A stretch of DNA of 64,000 nucleotides from Cladophialophora immunda (lineage: Eukaryota > Ascomycota > Eurotiomycetes > Chaetothyriales > Herpotrichiellaceae): contig NW_015622541.1 in assembly GCF_000835495.1 (NCBI RefSeq), positions 7,068,001 to 7,132,000 of the forward strand. Direction: 5' to 3'. Positions within the stretch are counted from its first letter, which is position 1; each line of letters begins with the position of its first letter. The notes beneath the pieces were generated by a model that was not told the origin of the DNA, ran no database searches, and saw only the letters and a list, made by a program, of their open reading frames with translations. Below, piece after piece: positions 21,754 through 33,269 of this stretch. The position numbers were made by a program, and so were the translations under genes.

Positions 21754-23497
21754 TCAGCCTTGTGGTTTGAAGGCCAGGTCAATAATGTCTTGAGAGACAT
21801 CCTCCTTCCTCAATAACGCCTTGAGTTGGTTGTCAATCCACGCAAGGGCGATTTTGCGTGTCTCTGCCTTCTTATGTTGGTATGCATTCCAGAAGCTGCC
21901 CTCATTCTTTACATCTTGAAGCGCCCCATCAATCAGTTTTTCTAGCTTTCCGTCCGACCTCGTCCCTCTGTTCATGATTCTATGAATGTCGTCGATCAGC
22001 ACGCAGCTCAACATCCCAAGCATCTGCGGGTCGTGTTGGATGCTGTCAAGCGATCGCTCGTGCAGCATCAGAGATTCCAAACATTGCCGGCATAAATTCC
22101 AGAACGTCCACATCTGCACGACTCGGATTGGATGATGCTCTTGTTCGAACATGACAGGATGTACTATCCTGACAAACACTGCCGAGTGCAACAGAGCCTC
22201 CGAATACCTCTGCGAGGCGAGTAGTCCAAGGAGCAACTGCTGCCGCAACTGAGGCCAAGGGTATCGGTACAGTGGCCAGCTGCTCGTCTGTGCCAGGCGA
22301 TGCATGATGTGATTGATGCTGTCAATCTGGGTGTGCTCGAGTCCAGTTTGAGATTGCAGGCCTGCGAAGAATTGCTCCACCTGGTCGCCGGTCTCAGCAA
22401 CGATGGCACTAATGGCTGGCTGGGCTGCATCAGTGGCCACGGTGTTCAGAGATGGGTGGAATCTGTCTCGAGGAGAGTCTCGACCTCTGGAGCACAAGCT
22501 ACAACTGCAAGTAAAGAAATACCGAGCCTTCAGTTCCTCTTGTCTCTTGTCAAAGGGGAATGTCGTATCAATATATGAAAGAGTCACTTCCTCGTCTCTG
22601 GCGATTGGCTTCAAGGCATGAACAGATATGTTTCCGTAGGGGGGGAAGTCCTCTTGATGACCTACTGCTGGGACGTCAAATCTCACAAATGCATTGGGAT
22701 CACAAGAGTGATTCAAAAGAGCTGGTTTGGGATGCAGAATCAATCCCAGAGAGTCGAATGTCGGGTTTGTCAGAGTAAAAGAGTTGACAAGCAACTGGAG
22801 AGTCAGTCTTGGTTCAGGACCAGCGTTCAATGCATGCTTACAATGCAAGATATTCGCAGTACTGTCTCCTCACTATGGTTGGTACCACAATAAGACTTTA
22901 TGCCCTTCATCATGATGAAGATATCTTGCCAACGCTGGCCCCCAGCTTTGATCAGGTCCTCTTGATGACTCTCAAGGGTCAGAAGCTGATCCCATTCGGA
23001 TTGAGAAAGAAGTTGTGCCTTGTGCTGCTTCAGTAGTCGAATGATAGCCCTAGCAGTGCTTGGGAGTATTCGAGGATGCAATCTGCCATAGAGCTTGCAC
23101 TCTAGCCGATGATACTCTAACCAAGCCCGAGTCTGGCACTTCTGCGCTTGGAGTTAGAACTTTTGCTTCCTGAGTATTCCCCTGTAGCAATATGGTAGCA
23201 AGACGCCCAACCTACTTGACCACAAAATTTGACGGCTTTGCATCCACCACACGTCTTCAAAGTCTGACCTTTGGCGTTTTCGGCAGATTGACTAGGATCT
23301 CCAGGGGAGCTATAGCAATAATAACAGCGAGTTTGCAGTTGAGGGGTCTCGAGTGCCACCATCAGAGGCCGAGCAACGAAGATGACCTCTGATTTGGGTG
23401 CGATATCGTGAACTGCGAATATGCCGTTTCCACGAACTGGCACTTGTTTCGTATAGGCCTTTTCGGCCTTGACCCATTGCTTCAAGGAAGTCGTCAT
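21754..23497 (-). CDS. SET-MYND (SMYD-like) lysine methyltransferase candidate
   Basis: Three exons (23497-23216, 23141-22842, 22794-21754) give 540 residues. The split SET domain begins with GNGIFAVHDIAPKSEVIF (S-adenosylmethionine-binding N-lobe). A MYND zinc finger is inserted: C58-x2-C61, C83-x2-C86, C92-x3-C96, and a final H105-x3-C109; the first intron interrupts it between Cys92 and Cys96. The SET core resumes with NSFTLTNP and carries the hallmark NHSCDPNA (222-229), then EVTLSYID and a post-SET CSCSLC. The remaining 240 residues form the helical C-terminal lobe. All expected catalytic motifs are present. Substrate unknown; histone or cytosolic protein lysines are both possible. Confidence 0.92.
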
Positions 23498-24216: not shown

Positions 24217-25059
24217 TCAGTTCTGTCCCTTCTTCGCTGCCGCCGCCTCCTTGGCCGCTATCTGGGCTTCAGTGTGGTGAGGATCACGAGACTGATGCTT
24301 GTTTGCCGCCGCCTCCTTAGCCGCAATCTGTGCTTCGGTGTGGTGTGGCTCCCTGGATTGATGTTTTTTGGCTGCTGCCTCCTTGGCCGCGATTTGTGCC
24401 TCTGTGTGATGCGGATCACGCGCCTGGTGCTTTTTCGCCGCTGCTTCCTTTGCTGCAATCTGAGCCTCGGTGTGATGTGGTGATCGCTTGTCAACCCAGG
24501 AGCCAAATTCGTCTTCGGTGCTGTCCCAGGGCCCGAACTCGTCGGGAGCTTGAGCACTTCGGGCGCGGTGACCCTTGGCTTGTGCTGCCTCTTTAGCAGC
24601 AATTTGAGCCTCTGTGTGATGTGGATCACGAGCCTGGTGCTTTTTCGCCGCTGCTTCCTTTGCTGCAATCTGTGCCTCGGTGTGGTGCGGAGATCGTTTA
24701 TCAACCCAAGAGCCAAACTCATCTTCGGTACTGTCCCATGGTCCAAATTCATCTGGAGCCTGAGGACTACGAGCACGATGGCCTTTGGCCTTGGCTGCTT
24801 CCTTCGCAGCGATCTGGGCCTCCGTATGGTGGCGACGCTCAATATCAGGAATCACCGCCCTGACGACTTTCGACGCCATGGAAGCTAGTGAACCCTGTCT
24901 GCTGTCAGTACGACGCAATAAAAGTTGTGTCCAGATTTTACTTACCACATATCTCCTCTCCACATCGTGGCCACGAGCCTCGAGTGTGAATCCAGCAGTG
25001 AGTGGCGCGGAGGCCAAAAGGCCAACGACCAAAGCTTTGGTGATCGAGAATGCATGCAT
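24217..25059 (-). CDS. Secreted repeat precursor with Kex2-type sites (candidate RiPP precursor)
   Basis: Two exons (25059-24946, 24894-24217) give 263 residues. The 51-nt intron (GTAAGT...CTGAC...ACAG) is a multiple of three without stops, so it is easily read through by mistake. Residues 1-23 are a signal peptide (hydrophobic ALVVGLLASAPLTAG). Dibasic sites follow: RR at 35-36 and 58-59, KR at 104-105 and 174-175. Seven copies begin HHTEAQIAAKEAA (residues 60, 108, 130, 178, 200, 222, 244). Copies 1 and 3 carry an insert holding two DEFG-x-W hexads each and ending VDKR. Such Kex2-cut, signal-bearing tandem repeats are the hallmark of dikaritin-type precursors, and two UstYa-family genes lie next door. 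An alternative is a repetitive secreted effector or wall protein. The product is unknown. Confidence 0.78.
   Translation of the reverse strand: MHAFSITKALVVGLLASAPLTAGFTLEARGHDVERRYVVSKIWTQLLLRRTDSRQGSLASMASKVVRAVIPDIERRHHTEAQIAAKEAAKAKGHRARSPQAPDEFGPWDSTEDEFGSWVDKRSPHHTEAQIAAKEAAAKKHQARDPHHTEAQIAAKEAAQAKGHRARSAQAPDEFGPWDSTEDEFGSWVDKRSPHHTEAQIAAKEAAAKKHQARDPHHTEAQIAAKEAAAKKHQSREPHHTEAQIAAKEAAANKHQSRDPHHTEAQIAAKEAAAAKKGQN
24220..24831 (-). repeat. Tandem coding repeat (66-nt and 144-nt units) of the precursor
   Basis: Seven units of 22 codons in the simple form; units 1 and 3 are 48 codons because of the DEFG-x-W/VDKR insert, so units 1+2 and 3+4 form a duplicated 70-codon super-unit. The DEFG-x-W pairs lie at 24706-24753 and 24496-24543. 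Variation is concentrated at the unit ends (HQARDP, HQSREP, NKHQSRDP). Confidence 0.9.
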
Positions 25060-26166
25060 CTTTGTTCTTTCGAATATGTTTTCAAAGTGAACTGACCGGC
25101 AGTCTTGAGCAATTGGCACAGAAGAAGTGAATAAACAATGGTCACAGACCTATATTGAAGTCAAGTGGAATGAGAGCTTGGGATTGGAATTTGCTGAGGG
25201 AGTGATGCAGATTTATATCAGATAAACAGAGTCTTTGAATCTAGGAATGCTGTGGTCCTTGCAGTGAGTATCGCCCTAGCCGTCCGAGACTACCTTTCTC
25301 GGTATGGCTACAAGTCTTGACTATTACACTGGAACCGTTAGAATAGGGTCGCATCATGGACGCAGGAAATGCCTCACGGGGTTGAGATCTCCTGGAGTTC
25401 TGCGACGAGCGACGCCTGTCCACGGCCTGGACCTGTGTCTGATCGCCATCGCTTTGCTAACAAAACCCAGGATGAGACCCCTAAGCGCCTTCAACCTCAA
25501 GAGGTATGTGCCACCAATACCCTCTTAGTTCTGTGGGCACGTCGGTCAATAGAAGAGGTGAGTGATCAGTTTCTAGGAGGCAGGATCCACGTGGAACATC
25601 TACCCGCCGCACCTAAGTTCAAGGTCACCATCAATATTGGCGTTTATGAGCTTGTTCTCCGCACGACCCGCATCTGTGTATCACAAAGCATGGTTTAGCC
25701 CTCAATCCGCGACCTCCAGCGAGAAGAACATCTCCCAGGAAGCCGTCTCGAAAGGCGTTGACAATGGACAATTCCTCCTTTGGGTTAGTATGGGGTACCG
25801 AATGTGGAGTATCACCAACATCTCCACAACGGGGGCAGTTGTTTGACCACTCCCTCCCCGGGCGCTACGCCATTCTGAAGCAGCACGTTGTGGGAAAGCT
25901 TTTCAGGTCTTGTCGCGACGCTTTGAAACCGAAAATGTGTTACAACTAGAGAATGGAGAAAGGCAGAGTATATGGCAACTTTACGCGGCCATATGCATGC
26001 TTGGACCAATTCGTGCGTCGCAGTGCTGGACTGATGTTCAATGCAAGTCTTCTTGACTCTTGCAGAACTTTTCCCCGTTTCCCAGGCCTCTTTCTGGCAA
26101 CATTGATCTCTTCCAGTACAAGCTTTGATGTACGCTGACTGAATCTTCCTACCTGGAACTTCAAAA
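25060..26166. other. Divergent intergenic region of the candidate RiPP locus
   Basis: 1.1 kb between the precursor start and the first UstYa-family gene; it would hold both promoters. Reading frames here are short and unrecognised (for example plus 25369-25698). Confidence 0.5.
25212..25217 (-). promoter_or_regulatory. Possible TATA box of the repeat precursor
   Basis: TATAAA on the minus strand, 153 bp before the chosen Met. The distance implies a leader of about 120 nt, so assignment is tentative. Confidence 0.3.
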
Positions 26167-27203
26167 ATGGATTGCAAATACCAGCCGTTGACTCCAGTCA
26201 TCGAAAAGCCTCGCGCCGAATCTCTCGATTCCTGTTCAACACTTGGTGACTTGGAGGATCTACAAATCCCGCTAACATCTGGTTCGAGCGCCTGCCATGG
26301 TCAGAGGCTGAGCATTCTGCGCCAATTTCTCACCTCAAATTGGCTATGGATGGTTCATGCGATTCTGCTTCTCACATCTTGCACGTTATTCACCCTTTCT
26401 ATCACGATCCGATCATCAACCTTAAAACATGTACGAGAGTTTTCTGCTTGGTGTAAGTAGTCCAGTCAAGTGGCAAGCCATGCAGAATCACATGAGCTGA
26501 CCGAGCATGCCGACAGCCCCTGCAGATACGGCCGTCAAGTTCAACTCCGTGAGGTATAACATCACAACAAACGGGAATAGGTTCGTCGGTGCTGGGCCTG
26601 AGGTGGACAAGGCCTGGCGCGAGATTTCCTATGATGGTACGGATTCGGCTGCCGAACCTCTGTTATCATGCTCAATATCTAACGTGTCTCTCAAAAATAG
26701 TTGGAGACCAATGGATCTCGAAATCTGACATCAAACACCTCGACATGCCGGATTCATCACTTGAAGTCAACCACCCAGAAACGGGCGAGGAAGGTTATCG
26801 AGTTGGGATGGAGGTATTTCATCAGCTCCACTGCATTAATCTCCTCCGTCGAGTGACGTACAAGGAGTATTACGAGCCTCTGGGAGGGGAGTTTGCAAAG
26901 GGGCCTGAGGAGTTGCAAAGACATACCGGTATGCCAACTTTCACCTTCACTTTTGGTTAGGGAGAATTGTGGCGAAGATCCATTCCTGCTAACTGTATTG
27001 CGAAAACACCAGATCACTGCATCGAGGTTCTCCGGTTAAACATACAATGCAACGCCGACGTAGGACTCTTCACTTTCTACATGATCGAAGGTGATCCGTT
27101 GGCCTGGCCAGAGCTTAACTCCAAGCACGTCTGCCGGGATTTTGACCGGGTGCGCCGGTGGGCCTTGGATCACTCGGTCGGGAATATGGAAGTTCTTTCC
27201 TGA
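26167..27203 (+). CDS. UstYa-family (DUF3328) oxidase-like protein 1
   Basis: Four exons (26167-26452, 26517-26636, 26701-26928, 27013-27203) join to 274 residues. A cytosolic tail of about 60 residues precedes one transmembrane segment (WLWMVHAILLLTSCTLFTL). The lumenal domain has the family pattern: RFVGAGPEVDKAWREIS, then the first HxxHC motif in FHQLHCINLLRR, and a second, HTDHC, followed by IEVLRLNIQC. The second motif is created by the last splice (T-D junction). It ends in a helix beginning HVCRDFDRVRRW. In ustiloxin, asperipin and related pathways such proteins catalyse oxidative cyclisation of peptide cores. Divergent from the repeat precursor, which supports a shared pathway. Substrate not shown. 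Confidence 0.92.
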
Positions 27204-28338
27204 AAGACAGACGGTCTTGCAACTCGGAGAACTTCCAACCTAGATTAGAACTTTTGGTAGAATGAGCGGTTAACCTCTGTCTCTTTCCTCAAACTCAATC
27301 AACTTGCAGTGCTTTTCGAACTTACCGATGCTTTGCAGGAGCGGCCCTCTCTAGACTAGCCCAACTCCTGCAGTGAGGAGCCTAAGCTGCGTCGTTCTCG
27401 ATCAATTTCCCCTTCGAGTCTGATACATGGAGAGATCGCGTCCAATTCGCGTGGGTCAGGGAAGCTTGACGATTTGGTAATGGAAACGCTCGCGCAATGA
27501 ATTCCTCCGCCACGCCTCGTCTCACATCAAGTCGTGAGTTGTGAGAGCCGCAAGAGACTAGATCAATCAGATTTCAAAGATGTGGGGGTGTAATGTGTAT
27601 CAGCGCGGACTAACCAGTTCAGAGAAAGCCACTGTTGCTCTTCGGGTTCGAAACAAGGCTTGCTCATTAACGATTGTCGATGTGGAAAATGTCGCATGGT
27701 TAAAAATGGAGTCGAGTTTCAACACTGGCTCTATGGGCCTCGCTTGAACGGCCATCAGGCTCTGATCGACCTAGTCAGCCTCATCGGCCCCCTGCATTCG
27801 ACCCCCTGGTGCCCCAGAATGTTGTGGAGTACAGTATGTAACCAGCCGGGCGGAACCTCGGCGCGTCCGCCAATTCTTTCTCTGATGTGATAGTCCAAGA
27901 CTTCAACAGTCTCGACTATAGACAAGACCAATCCACCAGACCAATACTGCGAATACGGCTCACAGACCCTATGGAGCAATGGTGTCGCCAGCGGATAAAA
28001 CGGCATTCGATGTGGCACCGCAGACTAAGATTACAACGCGCTTTCCAGGTGGATGCTAGCCATGCTATTCATCAACCATCTCATCGAAAGCTCAAACGTG
28101 TGATACGGTTTCATGGTAAGCCTCCTTGGCTGGAGCTTGATCCAGGGCGTTAGAAAGGAATATGCTTCTGATCCATTGTGAGCACATCACTGCTCCCCCC
28201 TAACGCCCATAACTTTCACCTCCAGCCTTTTCTGGATCTCATTGATGTTGGCTGCAATCTTGTTTCTGCACTGCTACCCTGTTTCCGTCCCCTACTGTTG
28301 CCCTCTGCTATTTTGTATTATTCCCCATACTTGACACC
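27204..28338. other. Intergenic region between the two UstYa-family genes
   Basis: 1.13 kb. Short frames at 27660-27890 (+), 27887-28153 (+) and 27755-28018 (-) are not recognised and share no obvious splice path; they may be relics. No transposon ends seen. Confidence 0.45.
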
Positions 28339-29458
28339 ATGTCTTGCTCAGCGGATGAAAGCACACATCCCATGCTATCGCAGCACAGAATCCGAGATGA
28401 GGAAGACGAGGATATTCCACTTGAGGACAGCGAATCAGACGTGACAAGAGTCTGCCATACGGCGCCATTTGGCAAAATGAACCGTCTACGAGCACGGAGC
28501 CCCTCGGACATGTCAATATGGTCTTATAGCGCTCCCAATCCACAGACAAGAGGACGGCAGCGGCTTGTCGCCGCCGTGGCTTGGTTTCGCTGGGGGATGG
28601 TCGTGATGTTGCAGACTGTCATTTTAGTCCTGCTGTGGCGGCAGAGCCTGAAAGGGACAGGAGGAGAAATGGATCCAATATTGAGAGGCAAAACAGTCGA
28701 GACCGGCGGCGACATCAATGGGATTTACAAAACAAGTAAGCACTTCATCTCTATACACCGCCCTCTGAGATCCTAATGTGACTCCACGTCGTGCATTCGA
28801 AAGTCCATCTGGATCAGCCACTGACTGATTGTGTTCAGCATCACATGCCTATACATTCTTAAAGCCCGACCCAGACAGATTTATCCCCAATATGACATCG
28901 AACGACAACCGGTTGGAGATACGGAGGAATTGGGACTTACTTATGCCATGTAAGCAGACCTGGAAGACACTGACAGTTCCAGAGCTGTCGCTAACTTGGA
29001 TTGGCAACAGTGGGTAGTGGCAGCGTTGCGATCCCAGACTACCGCGATCATCCGCTTCTCGGAGACCCGATTACAGACGATCCCATTCGTTCTGGGCCGC
29101 TTTTCGAGGCGTCATGGACGCACGCCTTGCATTGCGTTAGTCGCGACCCGCTGTCCTTTTCTTGAACAAAAAAAAAAATTGAAGCTGACCAAAACAGTTA
29201 TACTATGCCGTGGATAGCTACCACCAACTCATTGTCAACGGACGCACAGACAACGATAACCCGTACCATGCAGCCCACTGCTTCGAGTACCTTCGCAACA
29301 GCATTCTGTGTAACCTCGACATGACATTGGAGGGGTCGATGTCGACGCCAGATGACAAGGAACGTGGCCAGCCTCACGTATGTCGCAACCGAGAGGAGGC
29401 TATTGCCTGGATTGAGGCGAGAAGGGTGGACGATTTGCAGGACATTGTTGGACCATGA
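28339..29458 (+). CDS. UstYa-family (DUF3328) oxidase-like protein 2
   Basis: Four exons (28339-28735, 28839-28949, 29011-29135, 29198-29458) give 297 residues. An acidic/Ser-rich cytosolic tail of about 85 residues leads to a transmembrane segment (WGMVVMLQTVILVLLW). Lumenal domain: DRFIPNMTSNDNRLEIRRNWDLL (the family's N-terminal block), first HxxHC as HALHC directly before an intron, second as HAAHCFEYLRNSILC. The spacing and the LRxxxxC tail match the family. It differs from the first copy outside the motifs, so the two are ancient rather than recent duplicates. A poly(A) signal-like AATAAA lies 47 nt past the stop. Probably acts in the secretory pathway with the first copy. Confidence 0.92.
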
Positions 29459-29510: not shown

Positions 29511-29738
29511 TGCTTAACATCAAACCGATCTTCCAGCTATGTCCAAAGTGATAATGCGTGTCTTCTGGGAGCAGGGGAGCTCGGGAACCATATTTCCTCC
29601 ACGGCTAAACCTCGGAAGAAATTTCAACTCCGCAGTGCGGCACTCGCTCCAAATTTTATTTTCCCTGCGCTGCGGTCATTGATATTCTTCATATTCCCAC
29701 GAGTTGGCGGCGGAGGTGGTGAAGGGCTGCGGAACAAC

Positions 29739-32700
29739 ATGGAGTCACAAGCCAACAGGCCTCATCGGCCGTCCAAAGAGAAGAAACAGCCCAAAAAGGG
29801 AGAGAAGAACGTCAAGGCCTTCGCCGTCGCCAGGCCTGGGCGACTTGCAAAGCAAGCGGTGCGGTCTAGCGACATCAAGGAAAAGCGCCTTCATGTACCC
29901 CAAGTCGACAGAATTCCGGAAGAAGCCCCTCCTATCGTCGTTGCCGTCGTTGGCCCTCCCGGCGTCGGAAAGACCACCCTCATTAAAAGCCTGATCAGAC
30001 GCTACGCAAAACAGACGCTGTCGCACCCGACGGGCCCTCTTACCGTGGTGACCTCCAAGAGAAGACGCCTCACCTTTCTAGAATGTCCCTCCGACTCGCT
30101 CGCTGCCATGATCGACGTTGCGAAGATCGCCGACATTGTCCTCCTCATGATCGACGGCAACTACGGTTTCGAGATGGAGACGATGGAGTTCCTCAACGCC
30201 CTGAGCGTTTCTGGCATGCCGGGGAACGTCTTTGGCATCCTCACACACTTGGACTTGTTCAAAAAGCAGAGCACGCTCCGCGCGGCCAAAAAGAGGTTAA
30301 AACACAGGTTCTGGTCGGAGCTGTACCACGGGGCAAAACTGTTCTATCTGTCTGGTGTGATCAACGGACGATACCCTGACCGCGAGATCCACAACCTATC
30401 GAGGTTTCTCTCGGTCATGAAAAATCCCAGACCGCTGATATGGAGGAACAGCCACCCGTATTGCCTCGCAGACCGTTTCCTGGACGTGACACCGCCCACG
30501 GAGATTGAAGAGAATGAGAAATGTGATAGGCAGGTAGCACTGTACGGCTATCTTCGAGGCACAAACTTCCCAGCGGAGGGCGCGCGAGTGCACGTCCCGG
30601 GCGTGGGAGACTTGACAGTCAAAGAAATTGAAGCTTTGCCCGACCCCTGTCCAACCCCCTTCCTCGACCAGGCGATAGCCAAAGCGACGGGAAAAGCTCA
30701 CCGACGAAAACTGGGCGAGAAACAAAAAGTTCTTTTTGCACCCATGTCTGATGTTGGTGGCGTTCTGGTTGACAAAGATGCCGTCTACATAGACGTGAAG
30801 ACGAATACTTTTGACCGGGAGGCAGAAGACGCAGACGAGAGAGGGCTTGGCGAACAACTTATGATGAGTCTACAGTCGGAACGGAAGTTACTTGGGCAGG
30901 CGGACATTGGCGTCCGGCTGTTCCAGGGCGGTCGACAGCTCACATCGGATGATCCTGCGGAGAACGATACTGGCCGTAAGACGAAAAGGGGGATTCGAGC
31001 GTTTGGTGACAAGGGCGAATATGCCGAAGACATCGAGGACGATGAAGACGAAGGGTTTGTCAGTGGGGAGGACGATAGCGAGGCAGACGAGGACGAAACC
31101 AACGATTTCCCCGAGCATTCGGGAAGACCAGGGTTCATCGCTGAAGATGAATCCGTCGAGCGTGAGGGCGAAGACGATGTTGCATTTGCTGAAAGCGACT
31201 CCGACATGGGCTCCGTCTCAGGTGACGATGACGGCAGCAGGGATTTCTCAGCTGATGAGCTTGAGGCTTCTGATGAAGAGGATGAGGACGATGGAGGTCT
31301 TCGTTGGAAAGAGAATCTTGCTGAAAGTGCTCGAAAATTGCATTCCAACAAAGTCGCTTTCCGAGCTGCCGATCTTTCCAGATTGATGTATGATCTCACT
31401 CTATCGCCCTCCCAAGTAATGTCGAAATGGGCCGGACAAAAGGTGGGAGAGGACGTGGCTGCTGGCGAGGATGAAGATGAAGACGATACCTTCTTCAAGA
31501 AAGCAAAGACTGATCAAGAGACCACCCTTGAGGACCGACAGACGCCCAAGTACGATTATGACGCATTGGCTGAGAAGTGGGAGGATGAGGAGCATATCCA
31601 ATCACTGATGTCCCGCTTCACCAAAGGCTCAATTGCTACTGGAGGTAATGCAGATTCAGAGGCCGAAGGCGAGGAGGCTGAGGACTACGAAGATGACGAA
31701 TCTGATGAAGGGGATGGTGAATTTGAAGATCTGGAAGCGGCAGCGGACGAAGACTCAAAAGCTACAGCTGAGCTCACCCTTGAAGAAGAGCGGGCTCAAA
31801 ACGCCAAACGAAAAGAAGAACTGAAGTTACGCTTCGAGGAAGAAGACCGAGAAGGCTTCGCTAATGCCGCAAAGAAGGATATCGAAGCAGCAGAGCAAGA
31901 GTTTGGCGAGGATGAGTGGTACGACGCGCAAAAAGCGATGCTTCAGAAGCAAGTTGACATCAATCGAGCAGAGTTTGACAGCCTCGACCCCGTCTCGCGA
32001 GCAAGAGCCGAGGGATTTAAGGCCGGGAGCTATGCACGGATAGTGTTGGACAAAGTGCCTTACGAATTTGTGCGCTCGTTCAATCCGAAACTACCTGTTA
32101 TCGTTGGGGGACTGGCACCTACTGAAGATCGGTTTGGATTTGTGCAGGTTCGCATCAAGCGACATCGGTGGCACAAGAAGATCCTCAAGACGAACGATCC
32201 ACTCATCTTCTCCCTCGGCTGGCGGCGGTTTCAAACATTGCCTCTTTATTCGATATCGGACTCGCGGACTCGCAATCGAATGCTGAAATATACCCCCGAG
32301 CATATGCATTGCTTCGGCACCTTTTATGGACCGCTCGTTGCCCCAAATACTGGATTTTGCTGTGTCCAGTCATTCTCCAACGCCAATCCAGGGTTCAGGA
32401 TAGCAGCGACCGGGGTGGTGCTGAATGTTGATGAGACCACCGAGATCGTCAAGAAGCTGAAGTTGACGGGACACCCATACAAGATCTTCCGCAACACAGC
32501 CTTCATTCGCGATATGTTCAACTCGTCTATCGAAATTGCCAAGTTTGAGGGGGCAAGCATCCGCACCGTTTCTGGGATTCGTGGACAGATCAAGCGAGCC
32601 CTCAGCAAGCCTGAAGGGCACTTTCGAGCGACCTTCGAGGACAAGATCCTCATGTCTGATATTGTTTTCTTGCGAGCATGGTATCCGGTCAAGCCACATC

Positions 32701-33269
32701 GATTTTACAACCCAGTCACGAATCTCCTAGACGCGCCTCCCACAGGCGGTGCAGATGCTGGGGAAGAAGGACAAGGCCTTGATGATGGATCTAACGGATG
32801 GCAGGCCATGCGTCTGACCGGCGCCGTGCGAGCGGCGATGGGTATACCAACTCCCTTGGTGAAAGATTCAGCATACCACAAGATTGAACGGCCAGTTCGT
32901 CACTTCAATCCGCTGCGGGTCCCACGGACTCTGGCCGCGGATCTTCCATTCAAATCTCAAATCACACAACAAAAGGCACGCAAGGCACCAACATACCTCC
33001 AGAAACGAGCAGTTGTCCTGGGAGGAGAAGAGAAGAAGGCACGCGATCTCATGCAAAAACTGCAGACCTTGCGAAATGAGAAAGCTGAGAAGAGGGCCAA
33101 GAAGCAGGAAGAAAGACGGGCCGTGTATCGTAAGAAGGTGGCCGAGAACCTGGAGAAGAAGGAAGAGCGAGAGAAAAGAGAGCGAGACGAGTTTTGGAGA
33201 CGAGAGGGCCGCAAGCGAAAGACAAACGAGGGGAGCGGCGGAGGAGGAGGGAAGCGGCCCAGACGATGA
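29739..33269 (+). CDS. BMS1: Ribosome biogenesis GTPase BMS1
   Basis: Nucleolar GTPase of the small-subunit processome that works with Rcl1 in pre-rRNA processing. Intronless, 1176 residues, close to the yeast length. G1 is GPPGVGKT (72-79), then TFLECPSD and [21 protein letters not shown] long acidic middle (about 440-720, rich in EDE/DDE runs) is followed by the conserved C-terminal half: [56 protein letters not shown], and [25 protein letters not shown]. It ends in a basic coiled tail (KRPRR). The start follows AACAAC and precedes the lysine-rich N-terminus typical of BMS1; an upstream in-frame Met at 29679 would add a Gly-rich stretch. Confidence 0.97.
   Translation: [1176 protein letters not shown]

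What the first reader, a model, noticed from the sequence alone, without database searches (positions are those of the whole stretch)
24217..29458. Candidate dikaritin-type RiPP locus: Kex2-repeat precursor plus two UstYa-family oxidases
Seen: a signal-peptide protein with seven tandem repeats and dibasic sites, divergent from one DUF3328 gene and followed by a second, each with two HxxHC motifs and one transmembrane segment. Known: in the ustiloxin, asperipin, phomopsin and victorin-type pathways, UstYa-family proteins oxidatively cyclise core peptides released from Kex2-cut repeat precursors. Inference: these three genes make a modified peptide. The repeat sequence is not one I recognise, and no tyrosinase, P450, methyltransferase or transporter is in the block, so the product would be new or the locus minimal.
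Basis: partly seen in the sequence, partly recalled or inferred. Interest (0 to 1): 0.88.

Follow-up and report, generated by a model that had tools for sequence, protein, structure and literature searches.

The report
Conserved fungal histidine-repeat peptide cassette
A black-yeast fungus carries a three-gene unit, also found together in several distantly related fungi, that looks built to make a small secreted peptide starting with two histidines and modified by two copper-type oxidases; its product is unknown.

Summary
24217-29458 contains a repeat precursor (263 aa spliced), a divergent UstYa/DUF3328 gene (U1, 274 aa) and a second one (U2, 297 aa). The assembly matches Cladophialophora immunda. 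The seven repeats are constrained at the protein level: 161 synonymous, 0 non-synonymous differences over 21 pairs.

Precursor and oxidases are co-conserved: of 22 named precursor rows, 10 have a same-species oxidase row that can be judged, and 9 of these 10 share a contig length, several with adjacent locus tags.

The family is very probably Umemura's 2020 KEP type G-3 (di-histidine, DUF3328 neighbours): catalogued, but I found no product in print.

What I add: the shared repeat HHTEAQIAAK (218 of 237 exact) has no Tyr. In 235 of 237 repeats it follows Arg plus whole X-Pro/X-Ala pairs, a Ste13 signature as in alpha-pheromones, so the mature N-terminus should be His-His. The Phe/Trp module is absent from 7 of 7 Sclerotiniaceae precursors found.

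Best reading: a Tyr-less, pheromone-style matured, UstYa-modified peptide family. The oxidation chemistry and role are inferred.

The parts
24217..25059 (-). Repeat precursor, 263 aa after splicing; signal peptide, leader, seven A repeats, two B modules
   Evidence: 46 homologues at E<=0.01; single copy in this genome
24895..24945 (-). Likely 51-nt intron of the precursor gene
   Evidence: GTAAGT...TACTGAC...CAG; relatives P0001-P0004 carry the spliced reading
24220..24882 (-). Repeat array: seven HHTEAQIAAK repeats (A) and two DEFGPWDSTEDEFGSWVDKR modules (B)
   Evidence: 161 synonymous, 0 non-synonymous differences among A copies; 12 and 0 between B copies
25060..26166 (.). Intergenic stretch between the divergent precursor and U1 genes, possible shared promoter region (inference)
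   Evidence: Gene positions only
26167..27203 (+). U1, UstYa/DUF3328 protein, exons 26167-26452, 26517-26636, 26701-26928, 27013-27203
   Evidence: Pfam UstYa E=6.8e-52; two HxxHC, one hydrophobic segment
28339..29458 (+). U2, UstYa/DUF3328 protein, exons 28339-28735, 28839-28949, 29011-29135, 29198-29458
   Evidence: Pfam UstYa E=9.4e-14; two HxxHC, one hydrophobic segment

Best explanation
The three genes are one unit for a secreted, ribosomally made, oxidised peptide. (1) The precursor enters the secretory pathway (inferred). (2) A kexin-type protease cuts after Arg before each repeat and carboxypeptidase trims the C-terminus (inferred from sites). (3) A Ste13-type dipeptidyl aminopeptidase removes the EP/EA/DP/SP pairs and stops at His-His, giving HHTEAQIAAK... 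peptides (the register is shown; the enzyme is inferred). (4) U1 and U2, single-pass proteins of the copper-dependent UstYa/DUF3328 family, oxidise the HHTEAQIAAK core by cross-link or hydroxylation (family chemistry known from CctR; this reaction inferred). The core has no Tyr, so the Tyr-ether chemistry of ustiloxin and phomopsin cannot apply; a His, Thr, Gln or Ile position is the likely target (inference). (5) The Phe/Trp module B is a second, lineage-restricted peptide.
For: Protein-level constraint on every copy. Co-conservation in 9 of 10 judgeable species. Register: 235 of 237 repeats; 24 of 25 distinct spacers fit, against mean 5.6 and maximum 12 in 10,000 letter shuffles; shifting the core start by one residue gives 0 of 176 and 0 of 236. 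A is in all 47 precursors examined (they were found by it), B in 38 of 47 and in 0 of 7 Sclerotiniaceae, of which Ciborinia's gene is adjacent to U1. UstYa Pfam matches and paired HxxHC. CctR shows the family is copper-dependent. One DPPIV_N gene and one kexin P-domain match exist in the genome.
Against: No product, expression or mass data. Umemura found the di-histidine rate similar in KEPs with and without DUF3328 neighbours (5.7% and 3.9%), unlike Tyr (65.6% and 38.2%), so HH is no general mark of UstYa substrates. About half of the junctions (113 of 236) lack a dibasic site. Scytalidium lignicola has precursor and U1-like gene on different contigs. The precursor search was seeded with repeat A. 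A Tyr-type KEP in this genome also carries EP pairs, so the Ste13 mark is not special to this family.
Confidence: 0.65

Rival explanations
1. Phe/Trp-core version: the modified cores are DEFGPW and DEFGSW in module B, cross-linked through Trp or Phe; the HHTEAQIAAK repeats are recognition elements or by-products.
For: B has the only aromatic residues besides His (4 W, 4 F, 0 Y in the window's repeat region), is under the same constraint, and is present in 38 of 47 precursors.
Against: 9 of 47 precursors lack B, including 7 of 7 Sclerotiniaceae, and one of these is adjacent to U1 (Ciborinia); 4 of 4 Trichoderma precursors have only the FGSW half.
Confidence: 0.18
2. Linear signalling peptide: the repeats give an unmodified pheromone- or hormone-like peptide, and U1/U2 act on something else or are only neighbours.
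For: Ste13 register; Le Marquer et al. regard KEPs with that signature as hormone candidates.
Against: The same two UstYa orthologue groups accompany the precursor in distant lineages; 57 of 64 G-3 KEPs have DUF3328 neighbours, whereas pheromone KEPs almost never do (abstract).
Confidence: 0.12
3. Cell-wall or other structural repeat protein, unrelated to the oxidases.
For: Ala/Lys-rich repeats; no Pfam family reaches its cut-off for the precursor.
Against: The protease register and the repeated linkage to U1/U2 are not expected of a structural protein.
Confidence: 0.04

Closest known systems
KEP type G-3 (#6), Umemura 2020, PMC7329392 (outline, passages, section 6 part 1 of 2, sections 7 and 9 seen)
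   Same: Di-histidine repeat, DUF3328 neighbours (57 of 64), Ascomycota only. Of its 20 genera, 8 gave precursors here and 15 gave a precursor, U1 or U2.
   Different: Probably the same family, so no difference claimed; the paper's repeat logo and tables with accessions could not be opened, and no product or Ste13 register is given in the parts seen.
Dikaritins (ustiloxin, phomopsin, asperipin-2a)
   Same: Secreted repeat precursor and UstYa-family proteins in a cluster.
   Different: No Tyr in the repeats; no tyrosinase, methyltransferase or transporter in the block; Ste13-type spacers, which Le Marquer et al. do not predict for ustiloxin and phomopsin.
Ascomycete alpha-pheromone precursors
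   Same: Kexin site followed by X-Pro/X-Ala pairs before each repeat.
   Different: Repeat is not pheromone-like, and UstYa-family genes sit beside it; pheromone KEPs lack them with three exceptions.
CctR, DUF3328 copper hydroxylase of cyclochlorotine (PMC12435403, part 1 of 3 read)
   Same: One membrane helix and paired HxxHC motifs on two helices; the U1 orthologue model has the motifs on helices 173-188 and 204-224.
   Different: CctR acts on a non-ribosomal cyclic peptide; metal geometry here was not measured.

Membership tests
UstYa/DUF3328 (U1, U2) | Pfam UstYa match above cut-off | tested here: met
   176.9 and 52.2 bits, cut-off 25
UstYa/DUF3328 (U1, U2) | HxxHC...HxxHC motif and one membrane segment | tested here: met
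   aligned relatives
UstYa/DUF3328 (U1, U2) | Copper-dependent oxidation | not testable with these tools
   Shown for CctR only
Kex2-processed repeat protein (KEP) | Signal peptide | tested here: inconclusive
   Judged by eye; no predictor; no 19-residue window over 1.6
Kex2-processed repeat protein (KEP) | Repeats separated by dibasic Kex2 sites | tested here: inconclusive
   KR or RR before 3 of 7 repeats in the window, 123 of 236 in the family
KEP type G-3 (Umemura 2020) | Same genera, di-histidine repeat, DUF3328 neighbours | tested here: met
   15 of 20 genera seen here; motif text
KEP type G-3 (Umemura 2020) | Sequence identity with listed members | not testable with these tools
   Supplementary tables and figure not available
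Dikaritin | Tyr in the repeated core | tested here: not met
   0 Tyr in the window's repeat region; 6 of 237 A segments contain F, W or Y
Dikaritin | Multiple DUF3328 genes beside a repeat precursor | tested here: met
Dikaritin | Tyrosinase in the cluster (Ding definition as quoted in PMC12048977; asperipin lacks parts of the set) | tested here: not met
   0 of 11 genome matches in the window; nearest on C1 about 1.22 Mb away
Dikaritin | Oxidatively cyclised product | not testable with these tools
   No chemistry data
Alpha-pheromone-type maturation | X-Pro/X-Ala pairs between kexin site and core | tested here: met
   235 of 237; shuffle and register controls

The most novel reading that the evidence does not exclude
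A widespread fungal peptide hormone or metallopeptide: copper-dependent U1 and U2 oxidise or cross-link an invariant N-terminal His-His core, a histidine-centred chemistry that I know of for no UstYa-family enzyme, on a peptide matured like a pheromone; the His-His N-terminus may itself bind copper. A bacterial lanthipeptide with a His cross-link that is needed for copper binding (noursin, PMC10206099, passages) is a distant precedent.
Probability: 0.25. Interest if true: 0.85.

Novelty: new variant of a known kind. Interest (0 to 1): 0.6.

Why it matters
Umemura's table ranks this type third by number of genera among KEP types, yet I found no product in print, and its core lacks the tyrosine through which ustiloxin, phomopsin and asperipin are cyclised. 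Three genes suffice to describe it, the mature N-terminus is predicted to the residue, and Trichoderma species carry it, so it makes directly testable what UstYa copper enzymes do to non-tyrosine cores and whether toxin-type and pheromone-type peptide maturation are separate pathways in fungi.

Tried and rejected
Gave nothing: full-text search for the repeat letters (0 papers; 1 paper, on a human peptide list, from the string DEFGSW). PDB sequence search with the U1 alignment: 0 matches at E<=0.1. Foldseek of the U1 model against the PDB: 47 matches at E<=10, 0 at E<=0.001. The U2 model (pLDDT 57.8) was not used. Other precursor copies in the genome: none found. Five of nine other UstYa neighbourhoods were scanned for tandem arrays: one (C5) has a Tyr-type KEP; the others have no array or only short-period repeats.

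Rejected: chance repeat; structural protein (see rivals); weak Pfam hints for the precursor (DUF4096, EFTUD2), both below cut-off. The public model PV07_02068 (P0002, 193 aa) lacks 70 aa of the array. No single GT-AG cut reproduces it; a 210-nt GC-AG cut or one 158+52 two-intron reading does, so I think it a probable mis-annotation.

Limits: no fungal genome collection could be searched for gene order, so adjacency rests on locus tags and contig lengths in hit lists that show one member per 90% cluster. Rows for the trees were picked by hand from the hit lists.
Full report
WHAT IS THERE. The window lies on a contig of 8,230,860 bases, the length given for the contig of the near-identical precursor PV07_02068 of Cladophialophora immunda (P0002), so the assembly is almost certainly that species (Chaetothyriales). 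Between a SET-domain gene (21754-22848) and a BMS1-like ribosome-biogenesis gene (29679-33269) lie three genes: precursor 25059-24217 (-), U1 26167-27203 (+), U2 28339-29458 (+). U1 and U2 match Pfam UstYa, each with two HxxHC motifs and one hydrophobic segment. The precursor is found once in the genome; UstYa gives 22 exon matches in ten places, this one included.

REAL AND SELECTED. Over the seven HHTEAQIAAKEAA copies all 13 variable nucleotide columns are third codon positions: 161 synonymous and 0 non-synonymous differences over 21 pairs, where 8.7 of 39 sites are synonymous. The two copies of module B differ by 12 synonymous and 0 non-synonymous changes. Each copy is kept at the protein level.

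TWO OLD ENZYMES. In a joint tree of 55 hand-picked rows U1 and U2 each form one side of a branch (100/100); four U1 rows outside the main group have long branches and may not be orthologues. In the U2 tree ten rows, mostly Leotiomycetes with Venturia and Microthyrium, group at 100/100; in the U1 tree the corresponding rows are unresolved outside a 15-row group (97/96). In both trees Trichoderma (Sordariomycetes), Xylogone (Leotiomycetes) and Verruconis (Dothideomycetes) fall in one 11-row group with Eurotiomycete copies (U1 97/97, U2 98/96). That suggests transfer of the cassette between classes; it was not formally tested, and roots are midpoints.

THE CORE AND ITS PROCESSING. Among 237 A repeats in 47 precursors (46 homologues and the window), positions 1-10 keep their residue in 228-237 cases and 218 are exactly HHTEAQIAAK; position 11 is E in 148. 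The search was seeded with this repeat, so diverged precursors are missed. In 235 of 237 cases the residues between the last Arg and His-His are nothing or a whole number of X-Pro/X-Ala pairs (exceptions: P0026, and P0027 with no upstream Arg). Of 25 distinct spacers 24 fit; 10,000 letter shuffles give mean 5.6, maximum 12. Shifting the core start by one residue gives 0 of 176 (earlier) and 0 of 236 (later); shifts two or four residues earlier fit (19 of 19, 14 of 14), as they must, since they drop whole pairs, so the end of trimming is set by His-His not being an X-Pro/X-Ala pair. This is the Ste13 signature of alpha-pheromones. Le Marquer et al. 2019 (PMC6339444; passages and sections 10 and 16 read) say Ste13 is not predicted to process ustiloxin and phomopsin precursors. 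A Tyr-type KEP in this genome (L013) also has EP pairs. KR or RR precedes 123 of 236 repeats and 3 of 7 in the window, so a relaxed kexin or another protease is needed. The genome has one DPPIV_N gene and one kexin P-domain match.

MODULE B IS OPTIONAL. 38 of 47 precursors have an FGxW module and 9 lack it, among them 7 of 7 Sclerotiniaceae (Ciborinia and Botrytis/Botryotinia); the other two are unnamed metagenome rows. Ciborinia's B-less gene is adjacent to U1. The 4 Trichoderma precursors have only the FGSW half. I take A as the shared substrate. Against this, Umemura found that di-histidine is not enriched in KEPs with DUF3328 neighbours (5.7% against 3.9%), while Tyr is.

ENZYMES. CctR is a copper-dependent DUF3328 homodimer with paired HxxHC motifs on adjacent helices (PMC12435403, part 1 of 3 read). 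No solved relative was found.

PRIOR KNOWLEDGE. Umemura 2020 (PMC7329392) lists type G-3: 64 KEPs, 59 strains, 20 genera, 57 with DUF3328 neighbours, a di-histidine motif. Of the 20 genera 8 gave precursors here and 15 a precursor, U1 or U2. I take our family to be G-3; its logo and accessions could not be opened. In the lichen survey (PMC12048977, passages) no repeated precursor was found in the two clans studied. The Trichoderma paper (PMC7099791, passages) does not show this family in what I saw. Searches found no product; the library holds open-licence papers only, and listings were mostly read as titles and abstract starts.

VERDICT. Observation confirmed; the three-gene unit is strongly supported; 'dikaritin' only loosely. 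It is a Tyr-less, His-His, Ste13-registered variant of UstYa-associated KEPs, catalogued but, as far as I found, uncharacterised. Oxidation chemistry and role are inference.

Noticed in passing
L013:4101-4601 (G000:C5 about 4,221.1-4,221.6 kb): A second KEP with Tyr repeats (ETGYIAVSGN, ETGYIAILGN, ETGYFNVLGN) and KKR plus EP pairs, between two UstYa matches (C5:4220064 and C5:4223026): an ordinary dikaritin-like locus in the same genome.
   Followed up: partly
G000:C1:5844707-5867019: A tyrosinase match lies about 20 kb from a pair of UstYa matches; no KEP-like tandem array in L014, which covers only the UstYa side.
   Followed up: partly
L012 (G000:C1:8163500-8173400): Six UstYa exon matches within 7.3 kb, no tandem repeat found by TRF.
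   Followed up: no
24217-25059: The public gene model PV07_02068 (193 aa) is 70 aa shorter than the reading here, probably by mis-annotation inside the repeats.
   Followed up: yes
26167-29458: U1 and U2 of Trichoderma, Xylogone and Verruconis group with Eurotiomycete copies in both trees, suggesting transfer of the cassette between fungal classes.
   Followed up: partly
876-2084: HET-domain (heterokaryon incompatibility) ORF at the window's edge.
   Followed up: no
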